NCBI RefSeq assembly: GCF_000972705.2 | Contig: NZ_LATL02000016.1 | Span: 1-25,762, forward strand | Length of the DNA: 25,762 nucleotides | Reading direction: 5' to 3' | Source: Limnoraphis robusta CS-951 | GTDB taxonomy: Bacteria > Cyanobacteriota > Cyanobacteriia > Cyanobacteriales > Microcoleaceae | Shown here: positions 156 to 13,888 of the stretch, piece by piece | Layout: each line of letters opens with the position of its first letter | Numbering within the stretch: position 1 is the stretch's first letter | Translations under genes and position numbers: made by a program | The notes under the pieces: generated by a model | Seen by the model: the letters and a program-made list of their open reading frames with translations, nothing else | Told to the model about the DNA's origin: nothing | Database searches by the model: none

Positions 156-932
156 CTATTTTGTTTTTGTAGTGTCGTTAATCTTCTGATAAAGATAATC
201 GAGCAATTCTCTAACTGTCAAACCAATTTTTTCTGCTTCATAGTCTGATATCTCAATTTCAAATTCCTCTCCTATAGCCATAAAAAGCTCGAGGATCTGT
301 AATCCCCATGTATCATCTAAAGCCAAATCGTCTACAAGATGGCTGTCTAAATTTACATCTTCTTCATCGACTCCTGATTCTTCAGCCAATACCCTTCGTA
401 GTTGGAGAAAAATTTCGGCTTTATTTTTATTCCCATCAAATTGTTTGAGAAACTCCGCTTGTTCGCGCAACTCGGCTTCACGTTTAGCTTCTTCTGCCGC
501 TTTTCGTTCAGCTTGTTCACGCAACTCGGCTTCACGTTTGGCCTGTTCTGCCGCTTTTCGTTCGGCTAAACGTTTGGCTTCTTCTGCTTTTCGTTCGGCT
601 TGTTCACGCAACTCGGCTTCACGTTTGGCCTGTTCTGCCGCTTTTCGTTCGGCTAAACGTTTGGCCTGTTCTGCCGCTTTTCGTTCGGCTTCAAGCTGAA
701 CTTTATGCCTCATCTTTTCAAGGCGAGAAATAACGATATCCCTGACTCTAGTAAAATCGGCTTGAAAACCGCTCTGTTGATAGATTTTGGTTGCCACGTC
801 CCAAACAATTTTATCAACATTAGATTCCATGAATCTTAGATTTTCATCCGTTGGAGTGGCGATTTTATCCAAACAAAGATTAGCCGCCATATCCAGTATC
901 TTTAATTGATATTCCTTTTCGGATTCATTCAT
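156..932 (-). CDS. Coiled-coil protein with a serine-less acyl-carrier-like domain (copy 1)
   Basis: 258 residues in three parts. Residues 1-80 form an unrecognised, probably helical domain shared with the paralogue at 1284-2177. Residues about 81-162 are a highly charged Ala/Glu/Lys/Arg coiled coil made of near-identical blocks (ERKAAEQAKREAELREQ), repeated at the DNA level as well. Residues about 168-252 match an acyl carrier protein: VDEEDVNLDS, then VDDL, then FMAIGEEFEIEI and AEKIGLTVRELLDYL. Where a carrier protein has the DSL motif, this copy reads LALDDTWGLQ (203-212), with three extra residues and no serine, so it should not accept phosphopantetheine by the usual route (inference). 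No signal peptide or membrane segment is seen, so it is probably cytoplasmic. The ATG at 932 is supported by the matching start and upstream DNA of the paralogue. The function is unknown; a protein-interaction scaffold is possible. Confidence 0.8.
   Translation of the reverse strand: MNESEKEYQLKILDMAANLCLDKIATPTDENLRFMESNVDKIVWDVATKIYQQSGFQADFTRVRDIVISRLEKMRHKVQLEAERKAAEQAKRLAERKAAEQAKREAELREQAERKAEEAKRLAERKAAEQAKREAELREQAERKAAEEAKREAELREQAEFLKQFDGNKNKAEIFLQLRRVLAEESGVDEEDVNLDSHLVDDLALDDTWGLQILELFMAIGEEFEIEISDYEAEKIGLTVRELLDYLYQKINDTTKTK
461..700 (-). repeat. In-gene tandem repeats encoding a coiled coil
   Basis: Blocks reading ttcgttcggctwvttcrcg / caactcggcttcacgtttggcc on the plus strand recur about five times with little change and encode the ERKAAEQAKREAELREQ segments. 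Near-identity at the nucleotide level, including silent sites, points to recent expansion or gene conversion. Related blocks occur twice in the neighbouring gene (about 1300-1465 and 1775-1935). Confidence 0.75.
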
Positions 933-1200
933 GATCGGATAGGAACTCCAAAAATGAGGGCAGCCAACAGAATATTAATTTTAAGAGCGACTAACAACTA
1001 ACGGGATTTACCCCCTTCCCTTTCCTCGTAGGAGAGGGTTAGGGAGAGGTGGAGAGGGCGTTGCGGTGAGGTAGGGAAGGGGGTTGGGGGGTTAGGTTCT
1101 ACAATTTCTGGTTGAGAATGAAAACACCCTACTTAAAAAGGGGGGATAAACCCGTCTCGACCCCCACCCACTGCGATCAGAGCGATCGCACGGGTTGACA
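933..1200. other. Spacer between the two paralogues
   Basis: This stretch holds the 5' flank of copy 1 (about 930-980, resembling the 5' flank of copy 2), the inverted repeat at 1010-1084, and a G-run motif ggggggataaac near 1139 that recurs near 2335. I see no coding sequence in it. Confidence 0.5.
1010..1084. repeat. Intergenic inverted repeat
   Basis: A perfect 12-base arm ACCCCCTTCCCT (1010-1021) is matched by its reverse complement AGGGAAGGGGGT (1073-1084), 51 bases apart. The centre is purine-rich (gagagggttagggagagg). It looks like a dispersed cyanobacterial intergenic repeat or small palindromic element and lies between the duplicated genes. No uridine tract follows the arms, so it is not a standard terminator. 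Confidence 0.6.
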
Positions 1201-1340
1201 TCATTTTCTATAGCCATAGGAAGTTGTAGCATATCCATCTTCATCCAAATCGTTTGAAATATCTTTGAGAAAAATTTCGTCTTTCAACTCGACTGAGCCT
1301 GTGGCCTGTTCTGCCACTTCTCGTTCGGCTTGTTCGCGAA
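1201..1340 (-). pseudogene. Degraded second carrier-like domain of copy 2
   Basis: If the missing base near 1338 is restored, the frame continues through REQAEREVAEQATGSVELKD, then EIFLKDISNDLDEDGYATTS and ends YGYRK at 1201-1203. Its DNA aligns with the first carrier domain of the same gene: gaaatttttctcaaa, then a jump of about 55-60 bases, then gatatt...ggatatgctac...ggctatagaa. So the parent had a second coiled-coil/carrier module that lost an internal piece and then the frame. A sequencing error could account for the single base but not for the internal deletion. Confidence 0.6.
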
Positions 1341-2177
1341 CTCGGCTAAACGTTGGGCTTCTGCCACTTTTTGTTCGGCTTGTTCGCGCAACTTAGCTAA
1401 ACTTTTGGCTTCTGCTGCTTTTCGTTCGGTTTGTTCGCGCAACTTGGCTAAACGTTTGGCTTCTGGCACCACTGTTTTTGTAGTGTCGTTAATCTTCGGA
1501 TAAATATAATCGAGCAATTCTCTAACTATGCAAGAATTGTAGCCATAAAGACCAATTTTTTCTGCTTCATCGTCTGGTATCTCAATTTCAAATTCCTGTT
1601 CTATAGCCACAGAAAGGAGTAGCATATCCGCCCAATCTGCACCCAAATAGTGTTTAATATCGCTGTCTAAATTTACCTTTTCTTCATCGAGTCTTAATTC
1701 TTTGACCAATACCCATCGCAGTTTGAGAAAAATTTCGGCTTTATTTTTATTCCCATCAAATTGTTCTATAAAGTCGGCTTGTTCTAGAAACTCGGCTAAA
1801 CGTTTGGCTTCTGCTGCTTCTCGTTCGGCTTGTTCGCGCAACTCGGCTAAACGTTGGGCTTCTGCTGCTTCTCGTTCGCCTTGTTCGCGCAACTCGGCTT
1901 CACGTTTAGCCTGTTCTACCGCTTTTCGTTCCCCTTTAAGCTGAATTTGATGCCTGATCTTTTCAAGGCGAGAAATAATGATATCCCTGACCCTTGCAAA
2001 ATCGGCTTTAAAACCGCTCTGTTGATAGATTTGGGTACCCACGTCCCAAACAATTTTATCAACGTTAGATTCGATAAATCTTAGATTTTCATCCGTTGGA
2101 GTGGCGATTTTATCCAGACAAAGATTAGCTGCCATATCCAGTATCTTTAATTGATATTCGTTTTCTAATTCATTCAT
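1284..2177 (-). CDS. Coiled-coil protein with a serine-less acyl-carrier-like domain (copy 2, frameshifted tail)
   Basis: 297 residues as read. Residues 1-80 are almost identical to copy 1. A coiled coil follows (about 81-138), then a carrier-like domain (about 141-230) reading HYLGADWADMLLLSVAIEQEFEIEIPDDEAEKI. It aligns without gaps to the carrier consensus LGADSLD..., but Trp182 sits where the phosphopantetheine serine belongs. A short insertion, GLYGYNSCI, precedes VRELLDYI. A second coiled coil (about 237-280) then runs into an unrelated tail (ANKPNEKWQNRP...). The shift is explained by one missing C near 1338/1339: other copies read ttcgcgcaactcgg, this one ttcgcgaactcgg. The restored frame runs to a TGA at 1201-1203. 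The ATG at 2177 matches copy 1. The upper two thirds look intact; whether the gene still functions is open. Confidence 0.75.
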   Translation of the reverse strand: MNELENEYQLKILDMAANLCLDKIATPTDENLRFIESNVDKIVWDVGTQIYQQSGFKADFARVRDIIISRLEKIRHQIQLKGERKAVEQAKREAELREQGEREAAEAQRLAELREQAEREAAEAKRLAEFLEQADFIEQFDGNKNKAEIFLKLRWVLVKELRLDEEKVNLDSDIKHYLGADWADMLLLSVAIEQEFEIEIPDDEAEKIGLYGYNSCIVRELLDYIYPKINDTTKTVVPEAKRLAKLREQTERKAAEAKSLAKLREQAEQKVAEAQRLAEFANKPNEKWQNRPQAQSS

Positions 2178-2355: not shown

Positions 2356-2727
2356 TTAAATCATCGGCGTTTCAACGACTTCGTGATGGTGTCCGTGACA
2401 GTGACCTTGACCTCGGTGACGTTTCCCTTGTCTGCATCCTACCGTTGACGTTAACACCACCTGCTGAAGTTCTGCCAAGAGTTGATGCACTTTTTTCCAT
2501 TCTACCGCATCCGGGGAAGCCGCATCACATTGTTCTTGCCAACGATTGATGACGTCTTGTAGGTCGTTTTCTGGGAAATTCCCCACCAACTCTCCATTAT
2601 CCAACTGTCGCGTAATTTCGAGTAACTGGTCTTTTAGCGCCATCGGCACCCGAATGGTTTGCGTCGCCCCATGTCTCCAAGCCCCCCGACGTCCGGCGCC
2701 CTGACGACATCCTCCTCTTCCGTGCAT
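2356..2727 (-). CDS. Small basic protein, possible ribbon-helix-helix core, His-rich tail
   Basis: 123 residues from the ATG at 2727. That start is preferred because AGGAG lies ten bases upstream (AGGAGTTTAACCAATATG); an in-frame ATG at 2760 has no such site. The N-terminus is Gly/Arg-rich (MHGRGGCRQGAGRRG). TQTIRVPMALKDQLLEITRQLDNG follows, a strand-then-helix pattern like cyanobacterial proteins often suspected of a ribbon-helix-helix DNA-binding fold. The C-terminus, GKRHRGQGHCHGHHHE, is rich in His and Cys and could bind a metal ion (inference). Two CRQG motifs, one near each end, are unusual. It stands alone between the carrier-like genes and the HMA_2 pair. A metal-responsive repressor is possible but unproven. 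Confidence 0.65.
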   Translation of the reverse strand: MHGRGGCRQGAGRRGAWRHGATQTIRVPMALKDQLLEITRQLDNGELVGNFPENDLQDVINRWQEQCDAASPDAVEWKKVHQLLAELQQVVLTSTVGCRQGKRHRGQGHCHGHHHEVVETPMI

Positions 2728-3262
2728 ATTGGTTAAACTCCTAACGTTTGATAGATTCATCTTAGCCTATTTTTTGATTATGTGACAATATCTAAAATAG
2801 CACTATAGAGGAAAATATAGATTTTGTGACATAACCATAGACTTTGAACAATGTTGTAGCGCTTTAGGGCAAATTCCGATAGCCCCACAACAACTTAGTG
2901 GAGGTTATTCTCAATAAAATCAACGGTCTTAAAAGTTTAACAAAGTTTTCCTTAAGCTGTGACTGATTTATTCCTTGAATTTTGCTTAAAAAAGCCCTGT
3001 TTAAACAATTGCATATTATTCTCAATAGGAAATTTTAGATATTTTAAAACTTTCCTAAATTCCTTGCTACAAAAGGCTTAGGAGACAACACATAGACGTT
3101 TTAAATAAATTTTTGTAAAATAAAAACGATTAGACTTGTCATCAGAACAATAAAGCATTAAGCTAGAATTATAACCAGACTTAACCTCTGCTTAAACTTA
3201 GTAAAACAGCTTTGAGGAAGTTGGGTTTAGCATCTACTTTAGATTCCCCAAGGAGGTGGAAA
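2728..3262. other. AT-rich divergent spacer
   Basis: About 535 bases separate the minus-strand RHH-like gene from the plus-strand HMA_2 gene. Promoters for both are expected here, but no convincing -35/-10 pair could be picked. A motif gattNtgtgaca occurs twice (near 2776 and 2820) and might be a binding site. No ORF, RNA gene or mobile element was recognised. Confidence 0.35.
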
Positions 3263-4249
3263 ATGACCAATAGGACCCTGCAACCTTTTCATCCATCAAT
3301 TGAAGTGGTTCATGCAACGTCAGGGCGTGTGCGAATTAAAGTCCGGGGTCACTTAGAAACCGTCGCCCAACAGTTGCGACAAATTGAGGGAATTTACAGC
3401 GTTATTTTGCATCCTCAGACAAACAATTTAGTCTTGAAATTTGACACTCAAAAGCTGTCCCTGTATGAACTTTTAGCCCAATTAACCGCTTCTCCTTGTG
3501 AGTTAGAAAATAATAGCATTTCTTCTGCGGAAACCGTGATATTCACCCCAACACCTCAACCCTCAACAGAAATCATTGAAACGTTAATTCGGATGAGTGC
3601 AGCGATGCTATTAAACCGTCATTTAGGGATTAGCGGTTGGGTGTCGCTTCCCGTTTCCTATGCAACCAGTCAAGTCACGGCTAAAGTGATTAATGGAGTT
3701 AAACCCCAACTCAAAAATATTACACAGTTCACCTCTAATTCTCAGCCAACAGAAGAAAAAAATATAGAAATTACCGTGATTCATTCTACACCCGGACGAA
3801 TCAGATTGCGAGTTCCACAAGTGAAAAAAGATTCGCGCTACGCCAAACGCTTAGAAAGATTTGCCGAACAAATTTCGGGTATTAAAGACATTAATATCAA
3901 TCTCACAACCGCTTCTGTGAGTATCATTCATCAGTTTAAAAATAATGCTATACTAGAATCAGAGTTAAACCGTTTGTTTGAAAAAGTCGCAGAAACACAA
4001 CCGAGTTTTTCTGAGATTTTAACCCCGTCTGTCCCAACAATTTCTGAAGTCAAAGTCGCCCCAGTTGTTGAGGAAGCTAAACCCGAAGTCAAAGTTGAGA
4101 AACTTGTACAGAGAGTTACTGAAAAAACCGTCAATTCTACGCCGAAAGTTCCTGAAAAAACGAGTATATTTTCAGGATTTAAGTCCTCTATGCTGACGAT
4201 GTTTTTAAACTTCATGGCAGGTCGTCCCATGCCTCAAACCGTCAGTTAG
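3263..4249 (+). CDS. Tandem HMA_2-like domain protein
   Basis: 328 residues from the ATG at 3263, which has a strong ribosome site (AAGGAGG) six bases upstream; longer in-frame versions lack one. Two ferredoxin-like HMA_2-type modules are visible. The first, near residues 10-78, runs from IEVVHATSGRVRIKVRGH to the strand NNLVLKFD. The second, near 175-240, runs from IEITVIHSTPGRIRLRVP to DININLTTASVSIIHQF. Neither carries the CxxC metal motif of copper chaperones, so metal binding by that route is unlikely. A Pro/Val/Lys/Glu-rich linker and a short hydrophobic end (SSMLTMFLNFMAG) follow. The next gene, 45 bases on, is DUF5132-like; such pairs are commonly seen near P-type ATPases in cyanobacteria (family knowledge), but no ATPase is present here. 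The cellular role is unknown. Confidence 0.75.
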   Translation: MTNRTLQPFHPSIEVVHATSGRVRIKVRGHLETVAQQLRQIEGIYSVILHPQTNNLVLKFDTQKLSLYELLAQLTASPCELENNSISSAETVIFTPTPQPSTEIIETLIRMSAAMLLNRHLGISGWVSLPVSYATSQVTAKVINGVKPQLKNITQFTSNSQPTEEKNIEITVIHSTPGRIRLRVPQVKKDSRYAKRLERFAEQISGIKDININLTTASVSIIHQFKNNAILESELNRLFEKVAETQPSFSEILTPSVPTISEVKVAPVVEEAKPEVKVEKLVQRVTEKTVNSTPKVPEKTSIFSGFKSSMLTMFLNFMAGRPMPQTVS

Positions 4250-9764: not shown

Positions 9765-10684
9765 AACTATTTTATTATCAGCGAAAAGATAGAGCTAGTA
9801 ATTTTGGAGATCAACTGAATAACTGGTTATGGCCCCAACTCCTACCCGGATTCTTTGATGAAGACGAAACAACGACGTTTATCGGTATTGGAACCTTACT
9901 AAATCAAATATTACCTCAACGAATACCCCAAGCCAAACAGTTAATTATTTTTAGTACAGGTGTGGGTTATGAACAGCCTTTAAAAACGTTAGATAAAAAT
10001 TGGCAAGTTTACTGTGTTAGAGGTAAATTATCTGCAAAAAAATTAGGCTTATCAACCGATTTAGCAATTACAGATGGTGCCATTTTAACAAGACGTTTAT
10101 ATCAACCTTCCTTACAAAAAAGTTATCGTTATTCCTATATGCCGCACATTCATCATGCCACTTTTGCGGGGGAAATCTGGCAACGGATTTGTGAACAAAT
10201 TGGCTTTCATTATATTGATCCTCGCGCCTCTGTTGATCAGGTTTTCTCTAGTATTAGCCAAACAGAGGTTTTACTGGCTGAAGCGATGCACGGTGCAATT
10301 ATTGCTGATACTTTTAGGGTGCCTTGGATTCCGATGATTACCAGTCCGAGAATTCTAGCCTTTAAATGGCAAGATTGGTGTTCTTCAATGGGTGTAAAAT
10401 ACTCTCCTTATTCTCTTTCTCCCTTGGTGAAATCTTATCCTAAGTATGCTCGGGGAATACGTTCAACATTTCCAGCTTTAATTCATTGGAAAAATAGTTT
10501 CCTGCAATTTCCAAACATGAGTCAAATTTGGCAAGAACAAGAACAACTTTATGGAATACAACTGCTAAAAATTGCTGAAACGGGACGACAACAACTCAGT
10601 TCAGATGCAAAACTTGAACGCTTAACGGTTCAACTGGAAGAAAAGCTTGATTTATTGAGAACAGATTGGAGTTCTAAGTCTTGA
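9761..10684 (+). CDS. Polysaccharide pyruvyl transferase family protein
   Basis: 307 residues. Family marks: an N-terminal SNFGDQLNNWLWPQLL (13-28), FIGIGTLLNQ (40-49), the strand IIFSTGVGYE, VRGKLSAKKLG (86-96), and the conserved EAMHGAIIADTFRVPWIPM (174-192) with His177. These enzymes transfer pyruvate from phosphoenolpyruvate to a sugar as a ketal, adding negative charge to surface polymers. The start overlaps the preceding gene by four bases, so the cassette is GT2, GT-B-like, pyruvyl transferase. Its last 55 bases overlap the 3' end of the convergent AAA-like gene, unusual for two intact genes. The C-terminal tail beyond about residue 230 is poorly conserved in the family. Cytoplasmic. 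Confidence 0.85.
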   Translation: MKLFYYQRKDRASNFGDQLNNWLWPQLLPGFFDEDETTTFIGIGTLLNQILPQRIPQAKQLIIFSTGVGYEQPLKTLDKNWQVYCVRGKLSAKKLGLSTDLAITDGAILTRRLYQPSLQKSYRYSYMPHIHHATFAGEIWQRICEQIGFHYIDPRASVDQVFSSISQTEVLLAEAMHGAIIADTFRVPWIPMITSPRILAFKWQDWCSSMGVKYSPYSLSPLVKSYPKYARGIRSTFPALIHWKNSFLQFPNMSQIWQEQEQLYGIQLLKIAETGRQQLSSDAKLERLTVQLEEKLDLLRTDWSSKS

Positions 10685-11808
10685 GAATGAGTCAGTTGTT
10701 CTTCAACCCATTTTAGGTTAAATACATGGCGATAAATGTTATTTTTAACTTTTAGTAATCCTTCCTGTTTAGCCACTAACCCACTTAATAAAAGTTCAGT
10801 CTGTTCCCGACTATCATCAACTTCAATGTTTAAACCCTGTAGGATTTTCTGATAAATTTTGAGGAGAGTTTGAGTTTGCTTTTGATTGTAAATCAGTCGA
10901 TTTTTTATCGTTCGTAAATGTTCAGGTTCATCTTGTATTTCCCAGGATCTTATAAGATAAGACTGCACAATATTTTCAATCCATAATCTTTCTTTCCCCT
11001 GGGGAATAGTAAGTATTTTATTAGAGTTTTGTTGACTTATTTTCCAAACTATCTGACAAATTTTTTGGGTTAAAAAAGGTTGTCCGCCTGTCCAAAAGAG
11101 AATTTCTTTGAGTACCGTTTCAGGCTGAGACACTTTTCCTTCTAATCCTTTGATGAGCGGTTGAATTTCTGTGCTTTTAAACCCTTGAAGTTCGATAGAT
11201 GTACCAATCGAAAAAGGACTCTCAACGATATCTGTGACTAAATCTGAGGGTGTTGCTACGCCAAATACAGCAAAAATAAGACGGTTGTATTCAGGAGCAA
11301 TCGTTCGTTGATCGTAGTAGAATCGAATCAAGCTAAAAAAATTATCTAAAGAAAACGGTAAACGCAGAAGACTATCAACTTCATCGATTAAAAACAATAG
11401 TTTTTTGTGAGGCAAATAAATCGTAATAATTTCTCTGATAAACTGATGAAATCGCTGAATCGGAGTGAGCGCTATATATTTTTCCCACCAAGTATGAAAC
11501 TGAATTGTTTGAATTAAGTCTAACTCGATTAAAATTTGAAATAACAAGCATTTATACCAGCTTTCATCCTGTTTTTGTTCACCAGAAATACTGCTCATAT
11601 CTAGAGAGATACAACAAAACCCTTCTGCTTCTAGATTTCGCTTCATTCTCACTAATAAAGATGACTTTCCCATCTGACGAGCTTCAAAAACAGAACAAAA
11701 TTTTCCGCACTTGAGAGCGGTATAAAGTTGTCTGTCTGCGGCACGGATAACATAGCTGGGATCGTCACTTTTAAGACTTCCACCGACTTGATACTTAGAG
11801 AAAAACAT
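10630..11808 (-). CDS. AAA-like (STAND-type) ATPase
   Basis: 392 residues from the ATG at 11808, giving MFFSKYQVGGSLKSDDPSYV, the usual start of this family. An in-frame ATG at 11985 would add 59 unlike residues and overlap the upstream gene by 140 bases, so I reject it. The Walker A motif is ARQMGKSS (about 43-50) and Walker B is KLLFLIDEVDSLL. FWTGGQPFLTQKICQ and the winged-helix-like end (NIYRHVFNLKWVEEQL) complete the AAA-like module (PF14516 type). In cyanobacteria this module is often joined to WD40, TIR or kinase domains; here it stands alone, with no visible effector. It lies 37 bases downstream of another AAA-like gene on the same strand, so the two probably form an operon and may assemble together. 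Its 3' end overlaps the pyruvyl transferase gene by 55 bases. Confidence 0.8.
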   Translation of the reverse strand: MFFSKYQVGGSLKSDDPSYVIRAADRQLYTALKCGKFCSVFEARQMGKSSLLVRMKRNLEAEGFCCISLDMSSISGEQKQDESWYKCLLFQILIELDLIQTIQFHTWWEKYIALTPIQRFHQFIREIITIYLPHKKLLFLIDEVDSLLRLPFSLDNFFSLIRFYYDQRTIAPEYNRLIFAVFGVATPSDLVTDIVESPFSIGTSIELQGFKSTEIQPLIKGLEGKVSQPETVLKEILFWTGGQPFLTQKICQIVWKISQQNSNKILTIPQGKERLWIENIVQSYLIRSWEIQDEPEHLRTIKNRLIYNQKQTQTLLKIYQKILQGLNIEVDDSREQTELLLSGLVAKQEGLLKVKNNIYRHVFNLKWVEEQLTHSQDLELQSVLNKSSFSSS

Positions 11809-11845
11809 TAGCACCCACCCGGTTTTTTCGTTAATATTAAACAGT

Positions 11846-13888
11846 CTAACTGACTGTACTCGCTTGAAACTGACTAACAGTGACTCGATTGCGCCCCTTT
11901 CTCTTGGATTGATACAATGCTCGTTCAGTTGCCTGTACAATGGCTCTATAATTTTCTTCTGCATTGGGAATCGTATTAGACACACCCAAACTCACCGTGA
12001 CAAACTCTTCTGGAAAACCACCAAACTTCTGACTCTTAATTTCAATCGCTAAAGATTTTACCTTTTCACGGATTCTTTCAGCCACACAAACCGCCCCAGA
12101 CAAATCAGTTCGAGGTAGCAAAATAGAAAATTCCTCTCCACCATAACGAGCAACAACATCATCTGGACGGTTAACAGATTCTCGAATTGCTCTAGCAATT
12201 TGCCGCAAACAATCATCCCCGGCTGAGTAGCCGTAAATTGTATTATAGATTTTGAAATAGTCAATATCACACAAGATAAAGGATAGGTTTGTTTGCTCTC
12301 GAGAGGCACGTTGCCATTCCATTTGAAGATAGCTATTGAAGTAACGTTGATTTGCCAATTGTGTCAACTCATCTAAATTACATAACTGTTGTAACTCTAG
12401 ATTCTCTTTTTTTAACTGTTCAGAATCCGAAGATTCTTCAATCTTACTTATATCAGCAGGTGGGATAAAATTCGAGAGGGGAGTTTCCCCGTAGGTGGGT
12501 AAAAGTTGTTTGGTCAAATACAGACGGTACAATGCACAGCAAATCTGAACGCGATCGCCTTCTAAATTCACCAATCCTAAACTCTCTAATTGATGGGCTA
12601 AAATAGACTCAATCGTTACGCCGATCTCGCTTGCCACTATCTTTTGAAGTGCAGCTTTTAATTGAGGTTCGGCTTGAATTATCGCCAGCAAACGACGCAG
12701 ATAATCATTATAAATTCCGGCTTCTGTTGAGGCTTGTTCTAACAATTTTTGCAAGCGATTTTGAGGATGATCAGAGGTTTCATTCTCGGACATGGGGTCA
12801 GCCGATTGCCAAGTTGATCTTTGATTGAGAGGATGTTCAGGAAAGGTCAAATGATAAAATGCAAGCTGAATTAAATAAGGATGTCCTCCGACCATATTCA
12901 TCAGTTGTTCAATTTGAGTATTCCCCATCCAAGTCAATTCATATTGTTCAGCCAGTTGTTGAACTTGCTGAGGGGTAAAGGGGGGTAATGTTAAAGGTAA
13001 ACCCACATTAAACGGCGATTGATGCAGTTTGAGCGGCAGGGAAATTTCTGTAGAATAGGTAACAATCAACCGCAGTTTTTGCCAAATATTGACCTTGCGA
13101 GCTTGTTCATGCCAAAATCGCAACAACGGAAAAAATTCTCCGGCTATTTCGGGGAATTCAAACAGCCGATCCACTTCGGTAAAAGCCAGAACAATTGGAG
13201 ACTGAATTTGAGTCAAAATATAGCCTTGAAAATAGCTTGTGCAGCTCACTTTGCTCCCCATTTCTTCATCCCAATATTCATCGATCCTTGACTCTAAGTT
13301 TAATTCTCGCGTGACATTCATACTCAACCAACGCAAGAATTTATTGAGATCGCTAAAAATCACCCGATCCGCTTGTTGAAAGTCGATAATCACACTCTGG
13401 TAATTTTCCACTTCCGCTTGAGCCAGTAGATAAAAAATCAGAGAGCTTTTTCCCATTTTATGGGGTGCTCTGATGCGGATTAAACTACCCGGTTGAGTCA
13501 TTTCCCCATAAGCAAGTTCCTCAATCGGAGGTCGAGGAATATAAAAGCTAGAATTGTGCAGTAAAGGACGATTGGGAAATTCTACAATGTTTGTTACCGA
13601 AAAGTCCGATGGGTTCTGGAGCAACTGCTGTTGAGCGAGGGTCAAGGAACGAGACTCCAATATTTGACGAAAACTGGTTTTGTTGATGGGTTCTCCCCAA
13701 GTTTCACTCAGTAATAACCATAATCGGGCTGCAACTTTCCGAATTCGTTCGGCTCCGTAAAAGGCATCCTTGGCAATTACTGTATAGGTTTTTCCCTCCC
13801 ATGCTTGACGGAGTATGAGTTCTTGGAGAGAGGTTAAAGATTCCGACAGGGTAGCATTAAGCACCTGTATCACTTCGTCAATTGTCAT
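11846..13888 (-). CDS. AAA-like ATPase fused to a GGDEF diguanylate cyclase
   Basis: 680 residues. Residues 1-80 match the helical N-terminal domain seen in cyanobacterial vWA-MoxR-associated proteins (LQELILRQAWEGKTYTVIAKD, RIRKVAARLWLLLSE). Residues about 110-460 are an AAA-like STAND ATPase: Walker A APHKMGKSS (141-149, Lys147), Walker B PIVLAFTEVD (231-240), and NMVGGHPYLIQLAFYHL near 331-347. A short coiled coil (about 485-503) leads to a GGDEF domain (about 504-672) with DELTQLANQRYF, CDIDYFKIYN and an intact GGEEF signature at 583-587. An inhibitory RxxD site (RPDD, 574-577) sits exactly five residues before it, so an active, product-inhibited c-di-GMP synthase is expected. ATP-driven conformational change or oligomerisation may control the cyclase (inference). 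No membrane segment is present. The ATG at 13888 gives a standard family N-terminus. Confidence 0.88.
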   Translation of the reverse strand: MTIDEVIQVLNATLSESLTSLQELILRQAWEGKTYTVIAKDAFYGAERIRKVAARLWLLLSETWGEPINKTSFRQILESRSLTLAQQQLLQNPSDFSVTNIVEFPNRPLLHNSSFYIPRPPIEELAYGEMTQPGSLIRIRAPHKMGKSSLIFYLLAQAEVENYQSVIIDFQQADRVIFSDLNKFLRWLSMNVTRELNLESRIDEYWDEEMGSKVSCTSYFQGYILTQIQSPIVLAFTEVDRLFEFPEIAGEFFPLLRFWHEQARKVNIWQKLRLIVTYSTEISLPLKLHQSPFNVGLPLTLPPFTPQQVQQLAEQYELTWMGNTQIEQLMNMVGGHPYLIQLAFYHLTFPEHPLNQRSTWQSADPMSENETSDHPQNRLQKLLEQASTEAGIYNDYLRRLLAIIQAEPQLKAALQKIVASEIGVTIESILAHQLESLGLVNLEGDRVQICCALYRLYLTKQLLPTYGETPLSNFIPPADISKIEESSDSEQLKKENLELQQLCNLDELTQLANQRYFNSYLQMEWQRASREQTNLSFILCDIDYFKIYNTIYGYSAGDDCLRQIARAIRESVNRPDDVVARYGGEEFSILLPRTDLSGAVCVAERIREKVKSLAIEIKSQKFGGFPEEFVTVSLGVSNTIPNAEENYRAIVQATERALYQSKRKGRNRVTVSQFQASTVS

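What the first reader, a model, noticed from the sequence alone, without database searches (positions are those of the whole stretch)
156..2177. Tandem coiled-coil proteins with carrier-protein domains that have lost the phosphopantetheine serine
Seen: both genes join an N-terminal ~80-residue domain, a charged coiled coil and a domain with clear acyl-carrier hallmarks (FEIEI, EAEKI, RELLDY). Known: carrier proteins need Ser in the DSL motif. Copy 2 has LGADWAD with Trp182 in that place and no gap; copy 1 has LALDDTWG with an insertion. Both losses are independent in sequence, so the fold may have been kept for a non-carrier job such as docking. I know of no described system of this architecture.
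Basis: partly seen in the sequence, partly recalled or inferred. Interest (0 to 1): 0.75.

Follow-up and report, generated by a model that had tools for sequence, protein, structure and literature searches.

The report
Carrier proteins that lost their cargo hook
Two neighbouring cyanobacterial genes belong to a rare protein family, not found described in the papers searched, in which the small fatty-acid carrier protein was kept as a shape but lost the one amino acid that holds the cargo, probably turning it into a docking module.

Summary
Both genes (156-932, 1284-2177, minus strand) join a conserved ~80-residue four-helix domain, an E/A/R/K-rich helical spacer and a domain with the acyl carrier fold; copy 2 has Trp182 at the attachment position, copy 1 a three-residue insertion. 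Relatives are patchy in cyanobacteria (13 of 386 and 20 of 388 genomes in two overlapping samples, after removing false hits by eye). The carrier domain descends from fatty-acid AcpP, not from PKS/NRPS carriers. Serine is missing family-wide: gapless Ser in 4 of 50 domains, Glu/Asp in 25. Acidic AcpP docking positions (D38, E47, D56) are kept in 42-46 of 50. So these are not two private losses of this window, but a non-carrier docking role remains the best reading. Some relatives carry two to four such domains. In one genome the same kind of domain sits behind a JukA-like anti-phage sensor, with a weakly hydrolase-like gene upstream, so the domain can be swapped between N-terminal partners. 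Partner and function are not shown. The N-terminal domain has no Pfam match and no convincing PDB fold match.

The parts
156..932 (-). copy 1, 258 aa: N-terminal domain + helical spacer + Ser-less carrier domain
   Evidence: ORF; PF00550 22.0 bits; NF002148 5.4e-17
693..932 (-). copy 1 N-terminal ~80-residue domain, four predicted helices
   Evidence: AlphaFold2 pLDDT 89.3; invariant in 15 rows: M1 L13 D40 W44 I50 Y51 G55; best Foldseek E 1.1
441..692 (-). copy 1 helical spacer (residues 81-164), DNA repeats of 36/54/87 bp
   Evidence: relative P0001 is longer by 29 aa, the length of one 87-bp unit
159..440 (-). copy 1 carrier-like domain (residues 165-258)
   Evidence: AlphaFold2 pLDDT 87.2; Foldseek AcpP hits
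303..326 (-). copy 1 former attachment site LALDDTWG: no Ser, 3-residue insertion
1284..2177 (-). copy 2, 297 aa: same architecture plus a C-terminal spacer tail
   Evidence: ORF; PF00550 20.5 bits; NF002148 1.2e-14
1938..2177 (-). copy 2 N-terminal domain
   Evidence: 86% identical to copy 1
1764..1937 (-). copy 2 helical spacer (residues 81-138)
1479..1754 (-). copy 2 carrier-like domain
1626..1646 (-). copy 2 former attachment site LGADWAD, Trp182 in place of Ser, no gap
1284..1466 (-). copy 2 C-terminal spacer tail, residues 238-297
1201..1341 (-). probable relic in another frame past copy 2's spacer: spacer letters followed by ELKDEIFLK, the start of a further carrier unit as in multi-carrier relatives
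   Evidence: translation, compared by eye with P0016. Intact multi-carrier relatives exist
2356..2760 (-). upstream 134-aa gene; a counterpart (by eye) also lies directly upstream of the single copy in Lyngbya aestuarii
   Evidence: no Pfam match at E<=0.01

Best explanation
The two genes are tandem paralogues of a cyanobacterial family: a conserved four-helix N-terminal domain, a charged helical spacer of variable length, and one to four domains derived from fatty-acid AcpP. Shown by sequence: the fold and most of the acidic AcpP recognition helix are kept, while the phosphopantetheine Ser is gone in most members. Inferred: the window's domains are not phosphopantetheinylated and carry nothing; they act as protein-docking modules that bind a partner through the AcpP-type helix-2/3 surface, as unmodified AcpP can do with MukB, while the N-terminal domain does the conserved job and the spacer sets the distance. 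The partner is unknown.
For: Ser column over 50 domains: E14, D11, G5, S5 (4 gapless), W5, K3, L2, one each of V, P, H, R, one gap. Five further family-type domains outside that set have no Ser: L084 Tyr, L085 Glu twice, L039 Glu, L038 Lys; the dropped L020 fragment has Glu. Control: 28 of 28 ordinary carriers have Ser; these are 28 of the 30 loci given for the best of over 150 matches in six of the same genomes (L081 is a family member, L076 was left out). AcpP recognition positions acidic in the family against NRPS carriers: D38 42/50 vs 0/20, E41 31/50 vs 0/20, E47 46/50 vs 1/20, D56 42/50 vs 0/20. Family plus AcpP form one clade (100/98) apart from PKS/NRPS carriers. F50 and I54 kept in 48 and 43 of 50; Angelini 2012 says these two are crucial for ACP stability (PMC3340395, passages). 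Apo- and holo-AcpP stimulate MukB ATPase alike (PMC8602292, passages), so docking without the arm has precedent. N-terminal domain pN/pS 0.34-0.38, bootstrap upper limits 0.68-0.92. The same carrier type sits behind a different N-terminus in L084.
Against: No partner or binding was shown. IscS binding is lost in an AcpP S36T mutant (PMC13343975, passages), so not every AcpP docking survives loss of the Ser. Type I carriers also have acid at E41 (4/5) and E47 (3/5), so those two positions are not AcpP-specific, and T39 and V40 vary more than the Ser column. The carrier domain evolves fast: pN/pS 1.2-1.6 among the two window copies and L001, bootstrap ranges including 1, which also fits relaxed constraint. 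Four gapless Ser cases exist, so some members may still be carriers. At least 4 loci are broken or decayed (G005, G163, G240, G560).
Confidence: 0.55

Rival explanations
1. AcpP decoy or regulator: the Ser-less copies mimic apo-AcpP and bind fatty-acid enzymes, AcpS or SpoT-type sensors, tuning lipid synthesis or stress signalling.
For: Acidic AcpP positions D38 and D56, absent in the PKS/NRPS carriers compared (1/5 and 0/5, 0/20 and 0/20), are kept; apo-ACP as a growth inhibitor appears as a title in a reference list (Keating 1995, seen only as a citation). One member (L002) lies near a RelA_SpoT-domain gene.
Against: Patchy occurrence (1 of 61 genomes in the family of L. aestuarii, that one being L. 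aestuarii itself) while an AcpP-like match was found in 105 of 106 genomes; the RelA_SpoT neighbour is a single case; no neighbour recurs across the distant genomes read.
Confidence: 0.15
2. Recruitment module of anti-phage or other conflict systems: the Ser-less AcpP domain links sensor and effector parts, as adaptor domains do in such systems (that comparison is recalled).
For: L084 (G403) fuses the domain to a JukA-like protein (PADLOC JukA 5.5e-15; 59% identical over 217 aa to a stand-alone JukA-like protein of G608). A hydrolase-like ORF lies upstream (Hydrolase_4 0.0035, under its cut-off). A piece of that ORF recurs in an ORF two genes upstream of the family member in G506 (41% over 91 aa). 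Island-like contexts: an integrase ORF in G506; RelA_SpoT protein with PDC-S33 match, NA37 and, by eye, a recombinase near L002.
Against: One fusion only; a search with the whole L084 protein in a sample of 386 genomes found stand-alone JukA-like matches or carrier matches but no second fusion. PADLOC has no hit for the window's two proteins at E<=0.1 and only weak single-member hits (best 8e-4) among 27 members. No defence gene was recognised among six other window proteins scanned with Pfam; PADLOC was not run on them.
Confidence: 0.15
3. Decay: the family keeps a working N-terminal domain and the carrier part is drifting without function.
For: Carrier pN/pS about 1 or above in close pairs; copy 2's tail looks like a relic; several loci broken; the Acaryochloris-type carriers have lost most of the motif (alignment).
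Against: D38, E47, D56, F50 and I54 are kept in 84-96% of 50 domains from proteins only 24-57% identical to copy 1 outside its own group; six more distant pairs give carrier dN/dS 0.27-0.88, a seventh not computable; the domain was multiplied to 2-4 copies in P0013-P0018.
Confidence: 0.12
4. Still a carrier: another residue, or the Ser-bearing paralogues, takes the cofactor.
For: Gapless Ser in P0008 (twice), P0013 domain 1 and L018.
Against: No Ser at or near the site in either window copy and no second conserved helix-2 Ser in the family; ACP S36T cannot be modified (PMC3340395, passages).
Confidence: 0.03

Closest known systems
Type II fatty-acid acyl carrier protein AcpP (PF00550; TIGR00517/NF002148)
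   Same: Fold, most helix-2/3 acidic positions, core residues; one clade in the tree
   Different: No attachment Ser in the window copies; fused to an N-terminal domain without Pfam match and a spacer; insertion loops before helix 4 in many members; arrays of up to four
AcpP as a structural subunit (MukBEF, cysteine desulfurase-ISD11 complexes, among the PDB titles)
   Same: A carrier fold used for docking; apo-AcpP works on MukB (PMC8602292, passages)
   Different: There an ordinary AcpP, with Ser, is borrowed; here a Ser-less copy is built into the protein
Juk immune system sensor JukA (YaaW type; the YaaW name is recalled)
   Same: One relative of the carrier domain, L084, sits on a JukA-like protein
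   Different: The window's proteins have another N-terminus and no PADLOC match; JukA function taken from a review (PMC13282480, passages)
DUF1493 (PF07377), small ACP-like proteins (description recalled)
   Same: ACP-like resemblance (recalled)
   Different: Only 2 of 27 members touch the model, best E 0.0074

Membership tests
Acyl carrier protein AcpP | carrier fold | tested here: met
   for copy 1 (alignment given held two AcpPs); by homology only for copy 2
Acyl carrier protein AcpP | Ser in the DSL motif | tested here: not met
   Trp182 in copy 2, insertion without Ser in copy 1; gapless Ser in 4 of 50 family domains
Acyl carrier protein AcpP | curated score of the ACP models | tested here: not met
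   61.4 and 53.9 bits against cut-off 71 (NF002148); the multi-domain relatives P0013 and L085 do pass it on their summed score
Acyl carrier protein AcpP | phosphopantetheine attached | not testable with these tools
   needs mass spectrometry
PF00550 PP-binding (sequence family) | gathering score | tested here: inconclusive
   copy 1 over (22.0 vs 20.8), copy 2 just under (20.5); 26 of 27 members match at E<=0.1
PKS/NRPS carrier domains | tree placement with PCP or type I ACP | tested here: not met
   separate clades
Juk system | JukA-like region in the same protein | tested here: not met
   no PADLOC match for the window's two proteins; met only by the relative L084
DUF1493 | Pfam match | tested here: not met
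   no match listed for either window copy at E<=1; 2 of 27 members weakly

The most novel reading that the evidence does not exclude
A Ser-less AcpP has become a portable recruitment domain in cyanobacteria, the carrier-protein counterpart of death-fold or effector-associated adaptors, that links interchangeable N-terminal parts (the new four-helix domain, a JukA-like phage sensor) to effectors such as lipid hydrolases, with repeat-driven spacer length and carrier diversification serving specificity.
Probability: 0.13. Interest if true: 0.82.

Novelty: new variant of a known kind. Interest (0 to 1): 0.56.

Why it matters
AcpP is a highly constrained bacterial protein; Angelini 2012 calls its DSL signature absolutely conserved among bacterial ACPs of fatty-acid synthesis (PMC3340395, passage). 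A family that copied AcpP, kept much of its docking face and dropped its chemistry, in arrays of up to four, separates the two roles by nature's own experiment. It offers a tool to ask which AcpP interactions need the prosthetic arm, points to an undescribed ~80-residue domain, and, if the JukA link is general, would add a carrier fold to the list of immune adaptors.

Full report
What is there. Two minus-strand genes of 258 and 297 aa, 351 bp apart, share an N-terminal ~80-residue domain (86% identical), an E/A/R/K/Q-rich spacer and a carrier-like domain. The closest relatives are consecutively tagged genes of a Limnoraphis robusta MAG (P0001 and P0003; 90% and 65% to copy 1). Lyngbya aestuarii has one copy behind what looks by eye like the same upstream gene. 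The spacer is coded by tandem DNA repeats, and P0001 differs from copy 1 in length by 29 aa, the length of one 87-bp unit.

Who else has it. Protein search: 11 hits of 7992 scored candidates with the whole protein (one, P0011, a spacer artefact), 9 of 16 with residues 1-80, 22 of 7994 with the family alignment. Genome scans with the N-terminal alignment: 5 loci in genome contigs; 16 of 386 cyanobacterial genomes at E<=0.001, of which I accept 13; 22 of 388 in a second, overlapping sample, of which I accept 20. Among the accepted, G005, G163, G240 and G560 are broken and in G553 no carrier was found in the stretch read. 1 of 61 genomes in the family of L. aestuarii, namely L. aestuarii itself. 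Tandem pairs also occur in G147 and G202. Long forms P0013-P0018 carry two to four carrier domains after one N-terminal domain. Copy 2 itself seems to end in the relic of a further unit.

What the carrier domain is. Copy 1's domain is predicted as an AcpP fold (the alignment given held two real AcpPs, so some pull towards that fold is built in). In a tree of 78 domains, the 50 family domains and 3 AcpPs form one clade (100/98) apart from 20 NRPS and 5 type I carriers; one fast sub-clade (Acaryochloris type, 5 domains) groups with AcpP at 87/72, so the family is not shown as a single clade. The tree has 78 columns for 78 rows and its bootstrap had not settled.

The missing serine. The 50 domains come from 39 proteins. 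Left out: near copies (P0001, P0003, P0019, P0022, P0024), truncated P0007 and P0023, rows with too few columns (the L020 fragments, which show Glu, and one L012 fragment), and L037-L039 and L084-L085, read later. At the Ser column: E14, D11, G5, W5, S5, K3, L2, V, P, H, R one each, one gap; 12 of the 50, one of the five Ser among them, carry an insertion just there. The column has entropy 2.9 bits, against 0.3-0.8 at F50, E47, I52 and I54; T39 and V40 vary even more (3.4 and 3.5). No other helix-2 column offers a conserved Ser. Control: 28 of 28 non-family carriers have Ser. In 106 genomes an AcpP-like profile finds exactly one match in 95, none in 1 and more in 10: seven of these ten bear the family; of the other three, the extra domains read are Ser-less in G395 (L085) and Ser-bearing in G399 and G027.

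History. Unordered parsimony needs 5-6 changes between Ser and not-Ser, a loss-only history 15-17 losses. Both window domains lie in one starred clade of 18 without a gapless Ser. I therefore read the Trp and the insertion as later variants, not as two independent first losses; regain against repeated loss is not settled.

What was kept. Acidic AcpP positions used for partner docking (roles mostly recalled; D35 and D38 are needed for IscS binding in PMC13343975, passages) are kept: D38 42/50, E41 31/50, E47 46/50, E48 37/50, D56 42/50, against 0, 0, 1, 6 and 0 of 20 NRPS carriers and 1, 4, 3, 0 and 0 of 5 type I carriers. Many members add a loop before helix 4 ending in a conserved Cys (27 of 39 domains with that column). 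The N-terminal domain is under purifying selection (pN/pS 0.34-0.38) and changes less than the carrier.

Swapped partners. In G403 a 398-aa protein carries the same kind of domain (Tyr at the Ser position) behind a JukA-like region (PADLOC 5.5e-15), 59% identical to a stand-alone protein of G608. Upstream on the same strand, with one 114-aa ORF between, lies a 309-aa ORF with a weak hydrolase match (0.0035, under cut-off) and no PDB sequence match at E<=0.01. Its C-terminal piece resembles a 145-aa ORF two genes upstream of the family gene in G506 (41% over 91 aa), where an integrase ORF and a weakly PPPDE/LRAT-like ORF also lie. A review says JukA senses early phage proteins and acts with diverse effectors including phospholipases (PMC13282480, passages). 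G395 has a spacer with two Ser-less domains and no recognisable N-terminal domain. A second fusion was not seen in a sample of 386 genomes. This is a lead, not a demonstration.

How it probably works. Shown: architecture, ancestry, loss of the attachment residue, retention of most of the docking face, reuse behind other N-termini. Inferred: no cofactor, docking of a partner, spacer as a ruler. Precedent: apo-AcpP stimulates MukB ATPase like holo-AcpP (PMC8602292, passages); against it, AcpP S36T no longer binds IscS (PMC13343975, passages). The rivals are an AcpP decoy, an immune adaptor and decay.

Novelty. Searches in the PMC open library listed no paper that I recognised as describing such proteins (42, 44 and 64 returned none); I read only the listings apart from passages of PMC3340395, PMC8602292, PMC13343975, PMC13282480 and PMC12571901. 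Subscription journals and bioRxiv preprints were not searched.

Noticed in passing
window 1201-1341 (-): Probable relic of a further carrier unit in another frame past copy 2; multi-carrier relatives are intact elsewhere (P0013-P0018).
   Followed up: partly
window 2356-2760 (-): 134-aa protein with RGGCRQGAGRRGAWRHGATQTIRVPMAL near its start, no Pfam match at E<=0.01; counterpart by eye in the same place in Lyngbya aestuarii (L001 9500-9874).
   Followed up: partly
window 10630-11985 and 11846-13888 (-): Two overlapping ORFs with AAA_35 matches, the longer one with a C-terminal GGDEF domain.
   Followed up: no
window 3212-4249 (+): Protein with two HMA_2 stretches; a counterpart lies near the family gene in L001 by eye.
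   Followed up: no
L084 / L121 (G403 contig 753): JukA-like protein fused to a Ser-less carrier domain, with a hydrolase-like ORF and a 114-aa glycine-rich ORF upstream.
   Followed up: partly
L148 3565-4236 and 5054-6325 (G608): Stand-alone JukA-like protein with an nSTAND1-type ATPase ORF downstream.
   Followed up: partly
L002 7177-9366: RelA_SpoT-domain protein (PADLOC PDC-S33 8.8e-13) beside an NA37 protein, near a family member and, by eye, a recombinase ORF.
   Followed up: partly
L004 8473-9963, L038 909-2267, L150 3963-5369, L151 9835-11271: A similar 450-500-aa ORF lies directly upstream, same strand, of the Acaryochloris-type family gene in all four loci (by eye).
   Followed up: no
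family carrier domains, loop before helix 4: A conserved Cys (27 of 39 domains having that column) closes a variable loop; role unknown.
   Followed up: no
L048 721-1758 and L051 1486-2499: Distant proteins with a similar N-terminal domain and spacer, carrier part not recognised by profile.
   Followed up: partly
L085 722-1549 (G395): Spacer with two Ser-less carrier domains (DELD, DEIN) and no recognisable N-terminal domain.
   Followed up: partly
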